Of a stretch of DNA of 64,000 bases, positions 12,702-36,546 are shown in pieces (position 1 is the stretch's first letter; the number at the start of each line of letters is the position of its first letter). The stretch lies in NCBI RefSeq assembly GCF_040438925.1, contig NZ_CP159258.1:5541001-5605000 (forward strand). The letters are read 5' to 3'. The position numbers and the translations under genes were made by a program. The notes beneath the pieces were generated by a model. It was not told where the DNA came from. It saw only the letters and a list, made by a program, of their open reading frames with translations, and did no database searches. The stretch comes from Pseudomonas sp. MYb327. GTDB taxonomy: Bacteria; Pseudomonadota; Gammaproteobacteria; Pseudomonadales; Pseudomonadaceae.

Positions 12702-14471
12702 ATGTCTGTCGGTTGGCTGCGCGCCTGTGCGCTGGTGATGTTGGGGCTGTTCAGCGTGTCTGCGCTGGCAAAGGATAAAACCGCGATCGTGATCGGCGGT
12801 GGGGTCGCGGGCCTCACCGCTGCTTATGAGCTGCAGAACAAGGGCTGGCAAGTCACGCTGCTGGAAGCCAAGCCGAGCCTGGGTGGGCGTTCCGGCATGG
12901 CCACCAGTGAGTGGATCGGCAACGACAAGGCTCAACCGGTTCTGAACAAGTACGTCTCCACGTTCAAGCTGAGCACCACGCCAGCGCCTGAATTCGTGCG
13001 GACCCCGAGTTACCTGATCGATGGCGTGTATTACACCGCTGCCGATCTGGCTACCAAGGATCCAACCACGGCCGAAGCGCTCAAGCGCTATGAAAAGACT
13101 GTGGACGACCTGGCACGCTCGGTCGAAGACCCGCTGAACCCGGCAGCGAACAACACGCTGCATGCTCTGGACCAGATCAACGTGTCCAATTGGCTGGACC
13201 GCCTGAGCCTGCCGGTGACTGCCCGTCAGTTGGTGAACCAGCAGATTCGTACCCGTTATGACGAGCCTTCGCGCCTGTCGCTGCTTTATTTCGCGCAGCA
13301 AAGCAGTGTCTACCGTGGCGTTTCCGACCGTGACCTGCGAGCTTCGCGTCTGGTCGGTGGCAGCCCGGTGCTGGCCCAGGCCTTCGTCAAACAACTGAAA
13401 ACCATCAAGACCAGTTCCCCGGTCTCGTCGATTACCCAGGACAAGGACGGCGTCACCGTCAAGGTCGGCAGCGTGGGCTATCAGGCTGACTACGTGGTAC
13501 TGGCCGTGCCGTTGCGCGCGCTGAACAAGATCCAGATGACCCCGGCGCTGGACGCCCAGCACCTGGCCGCGATCAAGGGCACCAACTACGGTTGGCGCGA
13601 CCAGATCATGCTGAAGTTCAAGACGCCGGTGTGGGAACCCAAGGCCCGCATGTCGGGCGAGATCTACAGCAACACTGGCCTGGGCATGTTGTGGGTCGAG
13701 CCTGCCTTGAAGGGCGGCGCCAACGTGGTGATCAACCTGTCCGGCGACAACGCACGGGTGATGCAGGCGTTCGGCGACAAGCAGATGGTCGATCAGGTGC
13801 TGATTCGCCTGCATGCGTTTTATCCCCAGGCACGCGGCTCGTTCACCGGTTATGAAATCCGTCGCTACAGCACCGACCCTTCGATGGGCGGCGCTTACCT
13901 GGCTTTCGGCCCGGGCCAGATCAGCAAGTTCTGGCGCATTTGGGAACGTCCGATTCAGCGCGTAGCGTTCGCTGGCGAGCACACCGACACCTTGTATCCG
14001 GGCACTCTGGAAGGTGCACTGCGCACCGGTCAGCGTGCGGCCAGTCAGGTTGAAGACCTGGCGGCGGGCAAATCGTTTGAACCGGCGAAGGTCGGTCCGG
14101 CAGCGACGGCCGCTGCTGCGGCAGGTGCTGGCGCGGTGGCGGCGAAGAAGGGCAACTTCTTCACGAACTTGTTCGGCGGGTCGGACGACGAGAAGAAGCC
14201 GGAACCGGTTAAGGCGCCTGAGCCTATTGCACCGCCAGCTCCGGCGCCTGCTCCAGCCCCGGTCGCTGCCCCGGCGCCGGTTGAAGCACCGAAGCCTGCA
14301 ACTCCGGTGAAAGCCGAGCCTGCGAAGAAGGCTCCAGCCAAGACCCCGGCGAAACCGGCAGCCAAAACCGAGGCCAAAAAAGCCCCGGCCAAGACTCCGG
14401 CAAAAAAGGCTGAACCGGCGAAGAAGCCAGCAGCCAAACCGGCGGCGACTACTGAGACCAAGGCTCAGTAA
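12702..14471 (+). CDS. Secreted FAD-dependent amine oxidase with Ala/Lys/Pro-rich tail
   Basis: A 589-residue flavoprotein. Residues 1-23 form a Sec-type signal peptide ending SALA. A Rossmann FAD motif IVIGGGVAGLTAAYEL follows at about 29-44 with the downstream LLEAKPSLGGRSG. The C-terminal FAD/substrate segment RVAFAGEHTDTLYPGTLEGAL is typical of flavin monoamine oxidases. From about residue 450 the protein becomes a low-complexity tail of Ala, Pro and Lys with repeated PAKK/AKTP units, resembling the tail of the histone-like AlgP. Such a basic tail on an exported enzyme is unusual. The substrate is unknown. The 3' end of the gene and its terminator are duplicated about 2.6 kb downstream. 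Confidence 0.82.
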   Translation: MSVGWLRACALVMLGLFSVSALAKDKTAIVIGGGVAGLTAAYELQNKGWQVTLLEAKPSLGGRSGMATSEWIGNDKAQPVLNKYVSTFKLSTTPAPEFVRTPSYLIDGVYYTAADLATKDPTTAEALKRYEKTVDDLARSVEDPLNPAANNTLHALDQINVSNWLDRLSLPVTARQLVNQQIRTRYDEPSRLSLLYFAQQSSVYRGVSDRDLRASRLVGGSPVLAQAFVKQLKTIKTSSPVSSITQDKDGVTVKVGSVGYQADYVVLAVPLRALNKIQMTPALDAQHLAAIKGTNYGWRDQIMLKFKTPVWEPKARMSGEIYSNTGLGMLWVEPALKGGANVVINLSGDNARVMQAFGDKQMVDQVLIRLHAFYPQARGSFTGYEIRRYSTDPSMGGAYLAFGPGQISKFWRIWERPIQRVAFAGEHTDTLYPGTLEGALRTGQRAASQVEDLAAGKSFEPAKVGPAATAAAAAGAGAVAAKKGNFFTNLFGGSDDEKKPEPVKAPEPIAPPAPAPAPAPVAAPAPVEAPKPATPVKAEPAKKAPAKTPAKPAAKTEAKKAPAKTPAKKAEPAKKPAAKPAATTETKAQ

Positions 14472-14484
14472 CGTTCAGATGTAG

Positions 14485-14518
14485 AAAAAAGCGCGGCCTA
14501 AGGGTCGCGCTTTTTTTT
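14485..14518 (+). terminator. Rho-independent terminator of the amine oxidase gene, interrupted by IS
   Basis: A GC stem (GCGCGGCC paired with GGTCGCGC) preceded by an A-run and followed by T8. The T8 at 14511-14518 is also the left target duplication of the inserted ISL3-family element. Confidence 0.85.
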
Positions 14519-15826
14519 GGTTCTTCACGGATTACCGGGAAAGACGCTCTTGATCTTCATGAAAAAGAACTCGCTATCCCGGTAACCGTACGCCATCCGT
14601 TTAATGACTTTTATTCGATTGTTTATTCCTTCCAACTGACCGGTGTGCATCGGCCAGCGCACTCGGCTCACGATGCCCCGCCAGTAGCCCTTTAGCCGTT
14701 TGGCAAACTGGATCAGAGCTGGTATTTCGCTTTCATGAGCATGGCGCAGCCATTGCTTCCAGGCCGATCTCCAGGCCCAAGCAGCACTCGGCGTCCAGAG
14801 CGTTTTGAGCTCAGCTTTCATCAAATAAACCGTCATCAGCGATTGGTTGGCCGCCAACAAATCCTGCAAGTGAACCTGTTGTTCCGGCCTTTTCAGGTTC
14901 TCTGGATTGCGCAGCAACAGCCACCGCGCTTGCTTGATGACCTTGCGAGCCGGCTTGTCGTGGCGCAGTCGGTTAGCCTCGTCGACGCGGACCCGATCAA
15001 TCACCTCTCGGCCATATTTGGCCACCACATGAAAGAGGTCGTAGACCACTCGCGCTTTCGGGCAGTGCTGACGAACCTCCAGGTCAAAAGCGGTGTTCAT
15101 GTCCATCGCCACCGCTTCGATTCGAGCACACCCCTCTGGCCCCAGCTCCTCGAAAAAGGGCCGAACCGCCGCCCGGCTGCGGCCTTCACCGATCCATAGC
15201 ACTCGTCGCGTATCGGCATCCAACACCACGCTGGCGTAGCGATGCCCTTTGAACAGCGCGAATTCATCCATCACCAGGCGTCGTGGTTGCGCCTTTGGCA
15301 GCGTGCTCAACGCCGCCTGTAAGGCTCGACGCTCCAGCAACCGAACGGTGTCCCAATGCAGCCCAAACATCTGGGCCACGTGCAGGGTGGGAAGGCGCTA
15401 GCAGGTCTGAATGACCGCATCGGCTAAGCGGCGCGTCATGCGGGCATAGCGATCCAGCCAACTGACGGCCTCCATGCGCTTGCCACAGTCGCGGCAGCCA
15501 ACCCGCCTGAGCAAAACGCTGAGGCGTACCGCGCGACCGAGAATGGGAAGATCACGAACAGTTCGCTCGCAATACTCATGAGTGGTTGAACACGGTTTTT
15601 GGCAGCCGCCGCAGGAAGGGAATCGGGTGGCATGGGGAATCAGATCGATCTGTAGGGCGTCACCATCGGGCTTGATGGTGACGACAGAAAAGCCCTCCCA
15701 AAAAGGAAGGAAAGTATTAATATCACGCATAAGAACGCCGGTTTTTTAGATGTGTTTGCTCGCACGAACATCATCAATCAAATCGGCGTTCTTGTTTCTG
15801 TCTTTCCCGGGATTCCGTGAAGAACC
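14519..15826 (-). mobile_element. ISL3-family insertion sequence, copy 1 (1,308 bp, defective)
   Basis: Terminal inverted repeats start GGTTCTTCACGGATTACCGG on the left and, read inward, GGTTCTTCACGGAATCCCGG on the right. Both sides carry an 8-bp direct repeat TTTTTTTT (14511-14518 and 15827-15834). The element is almost identical to that at 35239-36546 and encodes the same transposase, but the gene has a nonsense codon. It lies in the T-tract of the amine oxidase terminator, inside copy 1 of the tandem duplication. Confidence 0.95.
14525..15730 (-). pseudogene. ISL3-family transposase, inactivated by amber codon
   Basis: The frame encodes the 401-residue transposase found intact at 35245-36450, but codon 111 is TAG (complement of CTA at 15398-15400) where the intact copy has GAG (Glu). 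This separates the N-terminal zinc-binding and helix-turn-helix part from the DDE catalytic part. A second difference gives Val instead of Leu at residue 228. A downstream start could still yield a ~284-residue catalytic fragment lacking the DNA-binding domain. The element could be mobilised in trans by the intact copy. Confidence 0.93.
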
Positions 15827-16014
15827 TTTTTTTTGCTTATCTAACAAGCGGAAGACATTACTTTTTTCAAACGCAGTAATCAGGTGCCGCGATTCATGAT
15901 CCTGGTCCTACACGCTTCGACCATATATCAGATTCTTCCCACAAATTAATCAGAAGCAAATGATGGGTGGCGCCTTGAATTAAAATCTATGCTTTCGGAA
16001 AATCTGGAGGGCGT

Positions 16015-16176
16015 ATGAAAACAATATTGGTTTTAGTGGTGTTGATAACATTCACAGGATGTGTTGATGGGAAATTCACTCTTAAAAGACATGCTCCTGA
16101 ATTGGCCCATAAGTGCCATATTAATCCATACGACCCAGATTGTTTGGATCCGCCTCCAATCTTCAAAAGCTCTTAA
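16015..16176 (+). CDS. Small putative lipoprotein, copy 1
   Basis: A 53-residue protein of unknown function. It begins MKTILVLVVLITFTGC, a short hydrophobic signal ending in a lipobox-like FTGC, so the mature N terminus would be the Cys at residue 16. The rest is about 38 residues and carries AHKCHINPYDPDC, a pattern shared with the paralogue at 17318-17479 and containing two cysteines. GGAGG precedes ATG 16015. It is convergent with the lectin gene, 26 bp apart. AT-rich compared with the surroundings. No family recognised; it could be a cell-surface partner of the lectin, but that is only an inference. Confidence 0.65.
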   Translation: MKTILVLVVLITFTGCVDGKFTLKRHAPELAHKCHINPYDPDCLDPPPIFKSS

Positions 16177-16202
16177 GTGTTCGATTAATGAATCATGAGG
16201 TG

Positions 16203-16703
16203 TTATGGAAATTTCCATATAGGAATTTCAGTGCCATCCGGAAGCACTTTTACCCACCTTTCCTTTGGCTTTGGAATGCGGCCAGGGGTGAATCCAAAGC
16301 GAGCCCAGCACATACTCCCTGTCCGTTTATCGTAGATGACTAGATTCCCGTCATCCTGAATAACCATACACGTGTTGTACCAAAGCGATTTATCAATGCT
16401 GTGAGTGCTGTCAGCAATCCATAAGCGCCGTCTGGACGGGTCATAAAGAAACCCATTATTGCTAATCACAAACATCAGAGGCTCACGCATCTTTTTCGGA
16501 TATAAGGTTCTGCTGTAAATCTGATTGCCATCTGCAATCCAGACTACAGCGCCGTTATCGGTGATTACTAAATTGCCATCCACTTGCAGCACCAAGCGAA
16601 ATCGCCCGTTTGGGGACATGAGATATTGACCCGGCGTCATCGTTTGGTTGGGCGGTAGTACTGGCGAGCCACTTGCTTGAAATGGTGTGTATCTGATAGC
16701 CAT
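16203..16703 (-). CDS. Monocot-type mannose-binding (B_lectin) protein, copy 1
   Basis: A 166-residue protein with one bulb-type lectin domain covering most of its length. Three beta-prism subdomains are visible: one with QVDGNLVIT (the final Tyr of the QxDxNxVxY mannose site replaced by Thr), a degenerate one FVISNNGFLYD, and one with the intact QDDGNLVIYD. There is no signal peptide, as in LlpA-type lectin bacteriocins, but those have two such domains and about 275 residues. Clearly paralogous to the protein at 17523-18017. The convergent small lipoprotein gene is adjacent. Role unknown: carbohydrate binding is well supported, antibacterial action is speculative. Confidence 0.85.
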   Translation of the reverse strand: MAIRYTPFQASGSPVLPPNQTMTPGQYLMSPNGRFRLVLQVDGNLVITDNGAVVWIADGNQIYSRTLYPKKMREPLMFVISNNGFLYDPSRRRLWIADSTHSIDKSLWYNTCMVIQDDGNLVIYDKRTGSMCWARFGFTPGRIPKPKERWVKVLPDGTEIPIWKFP

Positions 16704-16718
16704 GTTTCATTCCTTAAT

Positions 16719-16742
16719 CAATGAGTTGTTGAGCACTCATTG
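16719..16742 (-). promoter_or_regulatory. Conserved leader hairpin before lectin gene copy 1
   Basis: CAATGAG and CTCATTG pair around a ten-base loop directly upstream of the lectin ribosome-binding region. The same stem with a slightly different loop precedes the second lectin (18032-18054), so it has been kept while flanking bases changed. It may affect translation. Confidence 0.45.
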
Positions 16743-16863
16743 AATCAAGCTCGAATACGGAAATGGCGATACATATGTATTACAAGCCAATTAATTAAGC
16801 CGCAACGCGTTCCGCGTAGCAGCTGCCGAAGGCTGCGTTCGGCTGCGCAGCAGTCGTAAGCCA

Positions 16864-17112
16864 GTGGCACCGGCCCCAGCACCTGCTCCGACGCCAGCCC
16901 CGGCCGCTGCACCGGCGCCGGTTGAAGCGCCGAAGCCTGCGACGCCAGTGAAAGCCGAGCCTGCGAAGAAGGCTCCAGCCAAGACCCCGGCGAAACCGGC
17001 AGCCAAAACCGAGGCCAAAAAAGTCCCGGCCAAGGCTCCGGTGAAAAAGGCTGAACCGTCGAAGAGGCCAGCGGCCAAGCCGGCGGCGACTACTGAGACC
17101 AAGGCTCAGTAA
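16864..17112 (+). pseudogene. Duplicated 3' fragment of the amine oxidase gene
   Basis: An open frame encoding about 82 residues of the Ala/Pro/Lys tail, ending ATTETKAQ exactly as the complete gene at 12702-14471 does. It lacks the signal peptide, FAD domain and any convincing start signal. Differences from the parent (for example KKVPAKAPVKKAEPSKR against KKAPAKTPAKKAEPAKK) show the copies have diverged. It is a gene remnant produced by the tandem duplication and is probably not translated. Confidence 0.85.
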
Positions 17113-17125
17113 CGTTCAGGTATAG

Positions 17126-17157
17126 AAAAGCGCGGCCCGAGGGCCGCGCTTTTTTTC
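17126..17157 (+). terminator. Duplicated rho-independent terminator
   Basis: AAAAGCGCGGCCC and GGGCCGCGCTTTT pair around GA and run into a T-tract. It is the copy-2 counterpart of the terminator at 14485-14518 and is uninterrupted here. Confidence 0.85.
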
Positions 17158-17317
17158 TGATCCGATTTACATGAACTGAACTCTGTAGTCGCAAAGCGAT
17201 GATTTCAGTCCTACAAGCTTCAGCGATGTATCAGATACTTCTCACAACATAATCGGAAGCGAATGATCGAACTGGTTGAGCTTGAAGTATAGGCTCTTCA
17301 AAAAATCTGGAGCCTAT

Positions 17318-17479
17318 ATGAAACTAATATCAGTAATTTTAATATCGATAATACTTTCTGGTTGTGTGGTTGGCAAAAGCAGGGATCCACTGAGGATTCA
17401 AATGCTTCCCAAGCGCGACACTGAGTTAGCCCACAAATGTCGGATTGATCCTTATAAGCCTGAATGTTCAGTCAATTAG
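17318..17479 (+). CDS. Small putative lipoprotein, copy 2
   Basis: A 53-residue protein paralogous to that at 16015-16176. The start MKLISVILISIILSGC is a clear lipoprotein signal with a perfect lipobox LSGC. The mature part ends with AHKCRIDPYKPEC, again matching the AHKCxIxPYxPxC pattern. CTGGAG precedes ATG 17318; an earlier in-frame start at 17276 would bury the lipoprotein signal and is rejected. Convergent with the lectin gene 43 bp away. The middle portions of the two paralogues differ in length and sequence while the signal and the Cys motif are kept, which argues for a real, selected product. Confidence 0.7.
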   Translation: MKLISVILISIILSGCVVGKSRDPLRIQMLPKRDTELAHKCRIDPYKPECSVN

Positions 17480-17522
17480 ATGTTAAAAGGGTTTTAATTT
17501 CGGTAAGTGCTCGTAATCAAGA

Positions 17523-18017
17523 TTAATTAAAGTCCCAGTGAAAGATAGGTATGCCCTGAACTATCACATTAAGCCGCTTTTGTTTAGGGAAGCGGCCAGG
17601 AACAAATCCAGAGCGAGCCCAACGCAGATCTCCTGTTCGCATATCGTAGATGACCAAATTTCCATCATCTTGAATAATCAAACAAGTGTTGTGCCAAAGT
17701 GATTTATCCGTGCTGTGAGTGCTCTCAGCAATCCACAAACGACCCCGAGATGGGTCATAAAGAAAACCGCTATTGCTGATCACGAACTGCAAAGGCTCAC
17801 GCATTTTTCGTCGGTGCAATGTTTGGCTATAGGGTTGGTTGCTGTCTGCAGCCCAAATAATAGTCTCGCCGTTCTTGATGACTAAGTTTCCGTCAGTTTG
17901 CAAGATTAGTCGAAACTGTCCATTTTGTGATGTGAGGAATTGTCCAGACGACATCGTTTGGTTGGGGGGTAACACCGAGGTGCCATTTGCTTGAAACGGG
18001 GTATAAGTGATAGGCAT
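17523..18017 (-). CDS. Monocot-type mannose-binding (B_lectin) protein, copy 2
   Basis: A 164-residue single-domain bulb lectin, by eye about two-thirds identical to copy 1. Conserved blocks include YTPFQA at the start, VLPPNQTM, KMREPL and GFLYDPSR. The sites read QTDGNLVIK (last Tyr lost), a degenerate FVISNSGFLYD and an intact QDDGNLVIYD, so each paralogue keeps the same single complete mannose site. The C-terminal 15-20 residues are the most divergent part. No signal peptide. GC content is below that of neighbouring core genes. Possible roles are lectin-like bacteriocin, adhesin or immunity-type decoy; none is proven by sequence. Confidence 0.85.
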   Translation of the reverse strand: MPITYTPFQANGTSVLPPNQTMSSGQFLTSQNGQFRLILQTDGNLVIKNGETIIWAADSNQPYSQTLHRRKMREPLQFVISNSGFLYDPSRGRLWIAESTHSTDKSLWHNTCLIIQDDGNLVIYDMRTGDLRWARSGFVPGRFPKQKRLNVIVQGIPIFHWDFN

Positions 18018-18031
18018 GTTTTTCCCTTGAA

Positions 18032-18054
18032 CAATGAGTTGGTGAGCCTCATTG
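18032..18054 (-). promoter_or_regulatory. Conserved leader hairpin before lectin gene copy 2
   Basis: CAATGAG...CTCATTG with a nine-base loop, matching the hairpin before lectin copy 1 in stem and position relative to the start codon. Confidence 0.45.
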
Positions 18055-18130
18055 AATCAAGTTCAAATGTGTAAAATGCGGTACATATGTATTGCACGCC
18101 AATTAATGAAGCCGAAACGCGTTCCACGTA

Positions 18131-18254
18131 GCAGCTGCCGAAGGCTGCGTTCGGCTGCGCAGCAGTCGTGGATCCTGCGCCTGTGGTTTATCTGACAGAC
18201 CGCGAGTTTTGACTTTGCGCCTGCTTCGCAGCCGAACGCAGCCTTCGGCAGCTG
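18131..18254. repeat. REP-type inverted pair of a second family, in the 483-bp gap before cybB
   Basis: GCAGCTGCCGAAGGCTGCGT (from 18131) and its inverted partner ending CAGCCTTCGGCAGCTGC (to 18254) flank a short spacer. The first arm also closes copy 1 of the tandem duplication at 16819-16851. The rest of the 18018-18500 gap is AT-rich, with a small AAAGCG/CGCTTT hairpin around 18428-18447 and presumably the cybB promoter; no gene was seen there. Confidence 0.8.
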
Positions 18255-18500
18255 CTACAGGTTGCATATGGGCTTAAGGACCGTGGCGAAAAAATCAGTA
18301 GTAGCCATCGAATAAACCTTTTGATACAGGTGTTCTCTGGTTCGTATTCAGTTTTTTTCACAATTTCGACTTTAATCTTTACTTAACTCGCTTGCTTCAG
18401 ACTCTTGATCGGTTTTCTCGATATTTCAAAGCGAAATTTTCCGCTTTAATTCGATAGATAACTCGATAGTCTTGGGCCAGCACTTACAGGGATCTAGGCA

Positions 18501-19052
18501 ATGCAGCTACGAAACTCTACTTCCCGCTACGGCTGGGTCAGCATTTTCATGCACTGGGGCGTGGCGCTGGCGGTTGTCGGTCTGTTCGCGTTGGGGTTGT
18601 GGATGGTCGGTCTCGACTACTACAGCACCTGGCGTAAAGACGCGCCGGATCTGCACAAGAGCATTGGCCTGGTGTTGTTGGGCGTGATGGTGTTGCGGGT
18701 GTTGTGGCGCTTCATCAGCCCGCCGCCGCCAACCCTGTCCAGCTACAGCCGCATGACGCGCCTCGGCGCCAAATTCGGCCATGGCTTTCTGTATCTCAGT
18801 CTGTTCGCTGTGATGATTGCCGGTTACCTGATTTCCACCGCAGAAGGTGTCGGTATCCCGGTGTTTGGCTTGTTTGAAGTCCCTGCGCTGGTATCCGGAC
18901 TGCCGGACCAGGCAGATACCGCAGGCGTGATTCACCTCTACCTGGCGTGGGTGTTGGTAATTTTTTCCGGCCTCCATGCGTTGGCAGCATTGAAACACCA
19001 CTTTATCGACCGTGATGTGACCCTCAAGCGCATGCTGGGTCGCAAAGCCTGA
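18501..19052 (+). CDS. cybB: Cytochrome b561
   Basis: A 183-residue four-helix membrane cytochrome that binds two haems b and passes electrons at the inner membrane, probably from quinol. Histidines at about 18, 52, 94, 145 and 159 lie in or near the helices (for example [11 protein letters not shown] and [12 protein letters not shown]) and include the haem ligands. ATG 18501 follows a CAGGGATC site. The downstream yceI gene begins 33 bp later on the same strand. The cytochrome b561-YceI pairing is common in proteobacteria and suggests a shared role with isoprenoid quinones. Confidence 0.92.
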
Positions 19053-35238: not shown

Positions 35239-36546
35239 GGTTCTTCACGGATTACCGGGAAAGACGCTCTTGATCTTCATGAAAAAGAACTCGCTATCCC
35301 GGTAACCGTACGCCATCCGTTTAATGACTTTTATTCGATTGTTTATTCCTTCCAACTGACCGGTGTGCATCGGCCAGCGCACTCGGCTCACGATGCCCCG
35401 CCAGTAGCCCTTTAGCCGTTTGGCAAACTGGATCAGAGCTGGTATTTCGCTTTCATGAGCATGGCGCAGCCATTGCTTCCAGGCCGATCTCCAGGCCCAA
35501 GCAGCACTCGGCGTCCAGAGCGTTTTGAGCTCAGCTTTCATCAAATAAACCGTCATCAGCGATTGGTTGGCCGCCAACAAATCCTGCAAGTGAACCTGTT
35601 GTTCCGGCCTTTTCAGGTTCTCTGGATTGCGCAGCAACAGCCACCGCGCTTGCTTGATGACCTTGCGAGCCGGCTTGTCGTGGCGCAGTCGGTTAGCCTC
35701 GTCGACGCGGACCCGATCAATCACCTCTCGGCCATATTTGGCCACCACATGAAAGAGGTCGTAGACCAGTCGCGCTTTCGGGCAGTGCTGACGAACCTCC
35801 AGGTCAAAAGCGGTGTTCATGTCCATCGCCACCGCTTCGATTCGAGCACACCCCTCTGGCCCCAGCTCCTCGAAAAAGGGCCGAACCGCCGCCCGGCTGC
35901 GGCCTTCACCGATCCATAGCACTCGTCGCGTATCGGCATCCAACACCACGCTGGCGTAGCGATGCCCTTTGAACAGCGCGAATTCATCCATCACCAGGCG
36001 TCGTGGTTGCGCCTTTGGCAGCGTGCTCAACGCCGCCTGTAAGGCTCGACGCTCCAGCAACCGAACGGTGTCCCAATGCAGCCCAAACATCTGGGCCACG
36101 TGCAGGGTGGGAAGGCGCTCGCAGGTCTGAATGACCGCATCGGCTAAGCGGCGCGTCATGCGGGCATAGCGATCCAGCCAACTGACGGCCTCCATGCGCT
36201 TGCCACAGTCGCGGCAGCCAACCCGCCTGAGCAAAACGCTGAGGCGTACCGCGCGACCGAGAATGGGAAGATCACGAACAGTTCGCTCGCAATACTCATG
36301 AGTGGTTGAACACGGTTTTTGGCAGCCGCCGCAGGAAGGGAATCGGGTGGCATGGGGAATCAGATCGATCTGTAGGGCGTCACCATCGGGCTTGATGGTG
36401 ACGACAGAAAAGCCCTCCCAAAAAGGAAGGAAAGTATTAATATCACGCATAAGAACGCCGGTTTTTTAGATGTGTTTGCTCGCACGAACATCATCAATCA
36501 AATCGGCGTTCTTGTTTCTGTCTTTCCCGGGATTCCGTGAAGAACC
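35239..36546 (-). mobile_element. ISL3-family insertion sequence, copy 2 (1,308 bp, intact)
   Basis: Same inverted ends as copy 1 (GGTTCTTCACGGATTACCGG and GGTTCTTCACGGAATCCCGG read inward). It is flanked by a perfect 8-bp direct repeat AATAAAAA (35231-35238 and 36547-36554). The repeat overlaps the U-tract of the metK terminator. The transposase frame is uninterrupted, so this is the potentially active copy. Confidence 0.96.
35245..36450 (-). CDS. ISL3-family transposase (intact)
   Basis: A 401-residue transposase. The N-terminal zinc-binding domain has Cys40, Cys43, Cys47, Cys54 and a CRDC pair at 79-82. A helix-turn-helix follows around residues 95-140 (TLHVAQMFGLHWDTVRLL). The DDE core shows Asp155 in LVMDEFALFK, Asp210 in AVAMDMNTAF and Glu367 in TGQLEGINNR. 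Length and motifs match full-size ISL3 enzymes. It would act on both copies in this window because their ends match. Confidence 0.95.
   Translation of the reverse strand: MRDINTFLPFWEGFSVVTIKPDGDALQIDLIPHATRFPSCGGCQKPCSTTHEYCERTVRDLPILGRAVRLSVLLRRVGCRDCGKRMEAVSWLDRYARMTRRLADAVIQTCERLPTLHVAQMFGLHWDTVRLLERRALQAALSTLPKAQPRRLVMDEFALFKGHRYASVVLDADTRRVLWIGEGRSRAAVRPFFEELGPEGCARIEAVAMDMNTAFDLEVRQHCPKARLVYDLFHVVAKYGREVIDRVRVDEANRLRHDKPARKVIKQARWLLLRNPENLKRPEQQVHLQDLLAANQSLMTVYLMKAELKTLWTPSAAWAWRSAWKQWLRHAHESEIPALIQFAKRLKGYWRGIVSRVRWPMHTGQLEGINNRIKVIKRMAYGYRDSEFFFMKIKSVFPGNP

What the first reader, a model, noticed from the sequence alone, without database searches (positions are those of the whole stretch)
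14240..18168. Tandem duplication of a lectin/lipoprotein cassette together with a chromosomal gene tail
The 3' tail of the amine oxidase gene, its terminator, a small lipoprotein gene, a convergent bulb-lectin gene and a REP-type palindrome occur twice in the same order. The second gene tail is a headless fragment. The lectin and lipoprotein paralogues have diverged strongly, whereas the gene tail and terminator are closer, so the genes may be under diversifying selection or the tail is homogenised. The cassette is AT-richer than its neighbours. This looks like an accessory system being amplified at a fixed locus.
Basis: partly seen in the sequence, partly recalled or inferred. Interest (0 to 1): 0.75.

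Follow-up and report, generated by a model that had tools for sequence, protein, structure and literature searches.

The report
Two lectin-bacteriocin cassettes with immunity lipoproteins
A Pseudomonas chromosome carries, side by side, two cassettes in which a gene for a predicted lectin-like bacteriocin (a protein that would kill related bacteria) faces a tiny predicted lipoprotein gene; the lipoprotein gene was found beside nearly every examined gene of this bacteriocin subclass, so it likely protects the producer, although the class was described as needing no immunity factor.

Summary
The repeat is real: amine-oxidase tail, terminator, 53-aa lipoprotein, convergent B-lectin gene and REP occur twice at 14235-18168. 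The lectins are LlpB-type bacteriocins by sequence; tandem llpB genes and the amine-oxidase site are already published (PMC6465234). In-place duplication followed by divergence is disfavoured: a LEC1+LEC2 clade is rejected (p-AU 0.003), and dS is about 2 in the lectins but 0.26 in the tails. Decayed second tails beyond single cassettes in relatives suggest repeated insertion at the gene end.

The new point is the lipoprotein: within 400 bp of 72 of 74 non-redundant llpB genes, none co-directional, but beside 2 of 24 llpA genes. At 111 amine-oxidase/b561 loci, 27 have both genes, 14 the lipoprotein alone, none the lectin alone. Its mature part covaries with the lectin's C-terminal extension. 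I propose an overlooked immunity lipoprotein, perhaps acting like phage superinfection-exclusion lipoproteins. This is inferred; no protection assay exists. Against it: two llpB genes scored intact have a frameshifted lipoprotein and one has none.

The parts
12702..14471 (+). flavin amine oxidase gene (589 aa) with Ala/Pro/Lys-rich tail; fixed left neighbour
   Evidence: Pfam PF01593 8.8e-48
14235..14493 (+). tail copy 1 (end of amine-oxidase gene and start of its terminator)
   Evidence: repeat D2, 91% to 16876-17134
14485..14518 (+). terminator 1; its T-run was the IS target
   Evidence: inverted repeat and sequence
14519..15826 (-). ISL3-family insertion sequence inside cassette 1; 8-bp target duplications 14511-14518 and 15827-15834; transposase frame interrupted by one stop at 15398-15400
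   Evidence: PF01610 1.7e-67, PF14690 8.3e-7; ends I4; five copies of the transposase in the genome, two with a 406-aa and three with a 290-aa open frame
16015..16176 (+). lipoprotein LIP1, 53 aa, lipobox FTGC, then C-x8-C; putative immunity lipoprotein of cassette 1
16203..16703 (-). LEC1, LlpB-type lectin-like bacteriocin, 166 aa
   Evidence: NF033557 8.7e-42 (below its full-length cut-off); PDB 3m7h 2.3e-39
16712..16749 (.). inverted repeat just upstream of LEC1, overlapping its likely Shine-Dalgarno
   Evidence: by eye; no consensus RNA fold found
16770..16779 (.). TACATATGTA palindrome about 75 nt upstream of LEC1
16816..16856 (+). REP1, single arm, running straight into the headless tail
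16857..17112 (+). headless second copy of the amine-oxidase tail
17126..17155 (+). terminator 2
17318..17479 (+). lipoprotein LIP2, 53 aa; putative immunity lipoprotein of cassette 2
17523..18017 (-). LEC2, LlpB-type lectin-like bacteriocin, 164 aa
   Evidence: NF033557 4.3e-40, below its full-length cut-off
18082..18091 (.). TACATATGTA palindrome upstream of LEC2
18128..18168 (+). REP2, first arm of an inverted REP pair
18218..18258 (-). second arm of that REP pair
   Evidence: I2
18501..19052 (+). cytochrome b561-like gene; fixed right neighbour (name by eye, no family search run)
   Evidence: adjacent to the amine oxidase in 111 of 114 genomes examined

Best explanation
Each cassette is a predicted toxin-immunity pair: an LlpB-type lectin-like bacteriocin gene facing a small lipoprotein gene whose product likely sits in the producer's outer membrane and would protect it from its own lectin. 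Shown: the pairing, the orientation, the asymmetric loss (lipoprotein kept where the lectin is broken or gone) and the covariation with the lectin's C-terminal extension. Inferred: after export and lipidation the lipoprotein, braced by a disulfide between its two invariant cysteines, would bind the lectin's outer-membrane receptor from the periplasmic side (BamA is the receptor of the related LlpA proteins), or the lectin itself, and block killing, as phage superinfection-exclusion lipoproteins do with FhuA or LptD. The convergent arrangement would let the lipoprotein be made independently of the lectin, as with immunity genes of pore-forming colicins (recalled). The two cassettes are two lineages of the same system stacked at one site. 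Decayed second tails beyond single cassettes in relatives suggest that a cassette enters by recombination within the amine-oxidase tail, bringing its own tail copy, so the oxidase gene stays whole and a headless tail remains; an IS later entered terminator 1. Carrying both pairs would give two killing specificities and two matching immunities.
For: Pairing: 72 of 74 non-redundant llpB genes have the lipoprotein within 400 bp; the nearest is convergent at the lectin 3' end in 62, divergent at its 5' end in 10, co-directional in none. Of the 30 llpB genes contributed only by the GTDB scan, which were not used to build the profile, 29 have it. It follows the lectin to other sites: beside APS-kinase/GTPase (cysN-type) genes (L057, L059, L060, L062, L071), between imelysin and di-haem oxidoreductase genes (L054), and near Cys/Met-metabolism genes (L035, L064). 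Subclass: 2 of 24 LlpA genes have it. Asymmetry: 27 both (3 of them with a broken lectin), 14 lipoprotein only, 0 lectin only among 111 loci; 15 llpB genes scored broken next to an intact lipoprotein; G125 keeps two lipoproteins beside a C-terminal lectin remnant. Matching: among 26 pairs LEC1 and LIP1 both have G088 as nearest, LEC2 and LIP2 both G087 (for LEC1 two others tie at 84%, and G372, nearer still, was not in the set because its lipoprotein is frameshifted). Partial Mantel, lectin against lipoprotein given amine oxidase and b561: r = 0.41 (26 pairs), 0.44 (34 pairs). The C-terminal extension carries it (0.59 given the lectin domain; domain given the extension -0.04). Synonymous correlations are flat along the lectin (0.32, 0.36, 0.29) while amino-acid ones rise (-0.01, 0.43, 0.52). 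No Asp at +2 in any of 34 lipoproteins, compatible with outer-membrane sorting (rule recalled). Analogues: T5 Llp and Rtp45. Stacking.
Against: No protection experiment exists. Three llpB genes scored intact lack an intact lipoprotein: G372 (1-nt frameshift; the closest relative of LEC1, counted as 'both' in the site census), L186 (frameshift) and G363 (none; 37% identical, perhaps the minor branch). The LlpB paper states that no immunity factor is required, though no strain of its panel with a known genome carried llpB. No homology to a known immunity or superinfection-exclusion family beyond the signal-peptide region. Mantel tests do not fully remove shared ancestry; the C-terminal extension is the lectin part nearest the lipoprotein gene, and third-position correlations also rise towards it (0.28, 0.37, 0.57). 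The lectin gene is about three times longer, so small lesions would hit it more often by chance, and some rows scored broken may be cut alignments or draft errors. Some orphan lipoproteins lie away from any lectin and could have another role. The structure model of the lipoprotein is poor (pTM 0.28).
Confidence: 0.6

Rival explanations
1. The lipoprotein is a release (lysis) protein for the lectin, like the small colicin lysis lipoproteins; LlpB shows no signal peptide and needs a way out.
For: Size (53 aa with lipobox) resembles colicin lysis lipoproteins (recalled); how lectin-like bacteriocins leave the cell is open (PMC6240691, passages seen).
Against: None of the 72 nearest lipoproteins is co-directional with the lectin, so co-transcription is unlikely. 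A lysis gene without its toxin should be lost, yet 14 amine-oxidase loci keep it alone. Two invariant cysteines and covariation with the lectin C-terminus are not expected.
Confidence: 0.12
2. The lipoprotein has an independent role, such as general outer-membrane defence or phage exclusion, and shares insertion sites with llpB.
For: Orphan copies occur at the amine-oxidase site and elsewhere. The PHROG matched by most members is Cor superinfection exclusion (17 of 34 members, best E 0.0012).
Against: In the 10 members rescanned, the 5 Cor matches cover residues 1-21 at most, that is the signal-peptide region. llpB genes are almost never without it, at several unrelated sites. Lectin and lipoprotein covary beyond genome background.
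Confidence: 0.18
3. One reading: one cassette was tandemly duplicated in place and the genes then diverged under diversifying selection while the tail was homogenised.
For: Same order of parts; tail 91%, lectins 66% aa.
Against: LEC1+LEC2 clade rejected, p-AU 0.003; each pair has its own nearest relatives; dS about 2 against 0.26; lectin dN/dS 0.11; second tails also beyond single cassettes.
Confidence: 0.05
4. The lipoprotein is an accessory part needed for lectin activity or folding, or a surface partner of the lectin.
For: Tight linkage and covariation.
Against: Purified recombinant LlpB inhibits susceptible strains on its own (PMC6465234); the lipoprotein outlives the lectin.
Confidence: 0.05

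Closest known systems
LlpB lectin-like bacteriocins (PMC6465234)
   Different: The parts of the paper seen (parts 1 and 2 of 4; find passages) mention no partner lipoprotein, and its abstract says that no cognate immunity factor is required.
LlpA / pyocin L / putidacin L1
   Same: Homologous B-lectin domain (PDB 3m7h, E 2.3e-39).
   Different: Two lectin domains; self-protection by a different BamA loop (PMC6240691, passages); 2 of 24 LlpA genes have the lipoprotein.
Phage superinfection-exclusion lipoproteins (T5 Llp, Rtp45, Cor)
   Same: Tiny outer-membrane lipoproteins with an internal disulfide; Llp and Rtp45 bind an outer-membrane protein from the periplasmic side and change its outer loops (PMC9586334, PMC12685063; passages).
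   Different: No detectable homology beyond the signal-peptide region; paired with a bacteriocin, not a phage; target unknown.
Convergent immunity genes of pore-forming colicins (recalled)
   Same: Immunity gene faces the toxin gene and can be expressed independently.
   Different: Those encode inner-membrane proteins with several transmembrane segments (recalled).

Membership tests
LlpB lectin-like bacteriocin | single B-lectin domain, about 166 aa, with a C-terminal extension of about 32 aa | tested here: met
   166 and 164 aa; residues 8-127 match NF033557, whose full-length (two-domain) cut-off is not reached; B_lectin 1.9e-5 and 2.7e-5, below the Pfam cut-off
LlpB lectin-like bacteriocin | sugar motif QxDxNxVxY | tested here: met
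   QDDGNLVIY in both; a near copy earlier in each (by eye)
LlpB lectin-like bacteriocin | low GC and site at an amine oxidase or cysN | tested here: met
   relatives at cysN-type genes
LlpB lectin-like bacteriocin | kills related Pseudomonas | not testable with these tools
   no assay
bacteriocin immunity protein | encoded beside the toxin and not missing where the toxin is intact | tested here: met
   beside 72 of 74 llpB; 55 lectins scored intact with an intact lipoprotein, 3 intact without, so met with exceptions
bacteriocin immunity protein | survives loss of the toxin | tested here: met
   14 lipoprotein-only loci (one looks frameshifted) against 0 lectin-only
bacteriocin immunity protein | specific matching with the cognate toxin | tested here: inconclusive
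   covariation with the C-terminal extension, but linkage and ancestry not fully excluded
bacteriocin immunity protein | confers protection | not testable with these tools
   no assay
phage superinfection-exclusion lipoprotein (Cor/Llp/Rtp45) | sequence homology in the mature part | tested here: not met
   only weak matches over the signal-peptide region
phage superinfection-exclusion lipoprotein (Cor/Llp/Rtp45) | small lipoprotein with an internal cysteine pair | tested here: met
   lipobox Cys plus two further invariant Cys in 34 of 34; the disulfide itself is inferred
colicin lysis lipoprotein | co-directional, co-transcribed with the toxin | tested here: not met
   nearest lipoprotein convergent 62, divergent 10, co-directional 0 of 72
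ISL3-family insertion sequence | ISL3 transposase, inverted ends, 8-bp target duplication | tested here: met
   (the 8-bp rule is recalled)

The most novel reading that the evidence does not exclude
The major clade of LlpB lectin-like bacteriocins has a dedicated immunity factor that was overlooked: a 30-60-residue, disulfide-braced outer-membrane lipoprotein that works as a cellular counterpart of phage superinfection-exclusion lipoproteins, jamming the lectin's receptor from inside, with specificity read through the lectin's C-terminal extension. The pairs behave as stackable cassettes that enter at the end of a housekeeping gene and carry their own copy of that gene end, and many strains keep only the immunity gene.
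Probability: 0.45. Interest if true: 0.78.

Novelty: new variant of a known kind. Interest (0 to 1): 0.62.

Why it matters
Lectin-like bacteriocins are described as killers that need no immunity factor, and how they kill from the cell surface is open. A cognate lipoprotein, if confirmed, would split the class by self-protection (LlpA by receptor variant, LlpB by immunity lipoprotein), point to the lectin's C-terminal extension as a specificity element, and give a genetic handle (the immunity protein's partner) to find the LlpB receptor. Orphan lipoproteins would also be a genomic predictor of LlpB resistance, useful when such bacteriocins are considered for biocontrol.

Tried and rejected
In-place tandem duplication: disfavoured by tree and dS. 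Diversifying selection over whole genes: not supported. An illegitimate join at REP1 remains possible for the left end of tail 2. Homology of the lipoprotein to Cor, spanins or Pfam families: Cor over the signal-peptide region only; a few spanin and unknown-function matches run further but are weak. PADLOC: no match. Structure of the lipoprotein: low confidence, not used; the LEC2 model (mean pLDDT 62.7) returned LlpA and pyocin L1 structures among its best folds. Conserved RNA hairpin before llpB: inverted repeat visible, no consensus fold. Minor-branch LlpB: the search with the G363 protein found no other close single-domain member in 398 genomes, so its lack of the lipoprotein rests on one locus. 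Five lectin hits (in G061, G146, G230 contig 8, G272, G377) were not fetched; those genomes have no lipoprotein match at E <= 1e-3. The tested llpB loci of strains UW4 and A506 were not reached. Papers: searches list no report of an LlpB partner lipoprotein in the held library (listings only, except the parts named of PMC6465234 and PMC6240691).
Full report
Observation. The window is part of a complete 6.15-Mb genome; several of its unnamed relatives have contigs of the same length as named Pseudomonas records. The region 14235-18168 holds two units in the same order: amine-oxidase tail, terminator, lipoprotein, convergent lectin, REP. Unit 1 is interrupted by an ISL3-family element, 14519-15826, inserted in the T-run of terminator 1 with an 8-T duplication; its transposase frame has one stop. 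Of five transposase copies in the genome, three show a 290-aa and two a 406-aa open frame. The genome has no other llpB-like gene at E <= 1 and no other such lipoprotein at E <= 1e-3.

The lectins. Both proteins match the first domain of putidacin L1-type bacteriocins (NF033557, 8.7e-42 and 4.3e-40, below the full-length cut-off; LEC1 to PDB 3m7h 2.3e-39; the best fold matches of the LEC2 model are LlpA structures). Size, single domain, C-terminal extension and low GC fit LlpB as described in PMC6465234 (parts 1 and 2 of 4 read; find passages). [quoted passage not shown] No panel strain with a known genome carried llpB, so self-protection was not tested in what I read.

The lipoprotein. Each lectin gene faces a 53-aa ORF with a lipobox. 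Of 398 genomes 65 have a lectin match at E <= 1e-15; stretches around 60 of the places were fetched, and a lipoprotein of the same type lies beside the single-domain genes. An alignment of 34 has five invariant columns: start Met, lipobox Cys, and C-x3-P-x4-C. The protein database search returned 53 relatives, unnamed or named hypothetical, uncharacterised or lipoprotein, without Pfam domains. A GTDB scan kept 80 of 192 relatives; the 30 distant, mostly non-Pseudomonas loci L201-L230 have no lipoprotein, and L151-L200 were scored further. Over all non-redundant loci, 72 of 74 llpB genes have it within 400 bp; the exceptions are L194, where the contig ends near the lectin, and G363 (L088), a 37%-identical protein that may belong to the minor branch. 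Of 24 llpA genes 2 have it (L080, L196). Of the 30 llpB genes contributed only by GTDB, none used for the profile, 29 have it.

Site census. The gap is 558-727 bp in 63 genomes with neither gene, 894-1236 bp in 14 with the lipoprotein only, and at least 1482 bp in 27 with lectin and lipoprotein; none has the lectin only; 7 have 1634-1869 bp and another gene. Classes were assigned; absence means no match at E <= 1e-15 (lectin) and 1e-3 (lipoprotein). Of the 27, three lectins are broken (G160, G290, G367) and one lipoprotein is frameshifted (G372). Of the 14, one (G269) looks frameshifted and one (G125) keeps a lectin remnant and two lipoproteins. Elsewhere the pair lies at cysN-type, imelysin/di-haem oxidoreductase and Cys/Met-metabolism neighbours, so the lipoprotein follows the lectin, not the site.

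Asymmetry of decay. Of the 74 llpB genes, 55 are scored intact with an intact lipoprotein, 15 broken beside an intact lipoprotein, 3 intact without an intact lipoprotein (G372, L186, G363) and 1 has neither. Because the lectin gene is about three times longer, the small lesions alone are not decisive; the lipoprotein-only loci add to the asymmetry.

Covariation. In 34 amine-oxidase-site pairs (the 26 pairs less broken L067, plus 9 of 11 added GTDB loci, L171 and L180 being truncated), mature lipoprotein distance correlates with lectin distance given amine-oxidase and b561 distances (0.44). The correlation sits in the C-terminal extension (0.62; 0.59 also given the lectin domain), not in residues 1-60 (-0.01). 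Synonymous correlations are flat along the lectin, so linkage to the neighbouring gene does not by itself explain the gradient; third-position distances do rise (0.28, 0.37, 0.57), which tells against a clean separation. Permutation p values (0.0005, the least possible with 1999 permutations) do not account for phylogeny.

Origin of the tandem. A tree of 43 lectins places LEC1 with G372 and LEC2 near G087 and two others, with weak support for some branches; a LEC1+LEC2 clade is rejected (p-AU 0.003). Lectin dS is about 2 (saturated), tail dS 0.26. Tail 2 is closest to the window's own tail 1, leader 2 to G087. Asking each non-redundant amine-oxidase/b561 interval for a same-strand second copy of its own gene end found one in 11 of 42 lectin loci (the window included; L034 is a 19-nt match only) and 2 of 13 lipoprotein-only loci, against 0 of 10 empty and 0 of 7 other-cargo intervals; in the lectin loci it lies on the b561 side of the lectin, and several copies run through the stop codon into the terminator. 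The direct repeats suggest insertion by recombination within the gene end, repeated here to stack a second cassette; the number of empty controls is small and the mechanism is inferred. REP1 has one arm of what in L032 and L034 is an inverted pair and adjoins tail 2.

Mechanism and rank. The receptor-jamming step is by analogy with T5 Llp and Rtp45 (passages of PMC9586334 and PMC12685063), small outer-membrane lipoproteins acting from the periplasm; no homology was found. The locus and tandem llpB are known; the partner lipoprotein is not reported in the papers searched. I file the lectins as LlpB by sequence; bactericidal activity and protection remain untested.

Noticed in passing
L231-L237 (genomes G114, G083, G233, G220, G237, G355, G183): The amine-oxidase/b561 gap holds instead a gene on the opposite strand for a protein of roughly 320-360 aa that looks like a YncE-like beta-propeller (by eye), so the gap is a small insertion hot spot.
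   Followed up: partly
16712-16749, 16770-16779 and 18082-18091: Inverted repeat overlapping the likely Shine-Dalgarno and a TACATATGTA-like palindrome about 75 nt upstream of many llpB genes; possibly regulatory. No consensus RNA fold was found.
   Followed up: partly
L080 and L196: Two two-domain LlpA-type genes have one or two lipoproteins of the same motif, convergent at their 3' end.
   Followed up: partly
window about 35248-36099 (-): Another copy of the ISL3 transposase with a 406-aa open frame.
   Followed up: partly
L199 (P. capeferrum WCS358): Broken llpB with an intact lipoprotein; a strain WCS358 was resistant to both LlpBs in the published panel, as were most strains.
   Followed up: no
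L044, L069, L128, L181: Two lipoproteins of different subtype stand in a row beside one broken or remnant lectin, as if immunity genes accumulate; in L069 and L181 one of the two is itself degenerate.
   Followed up: partly
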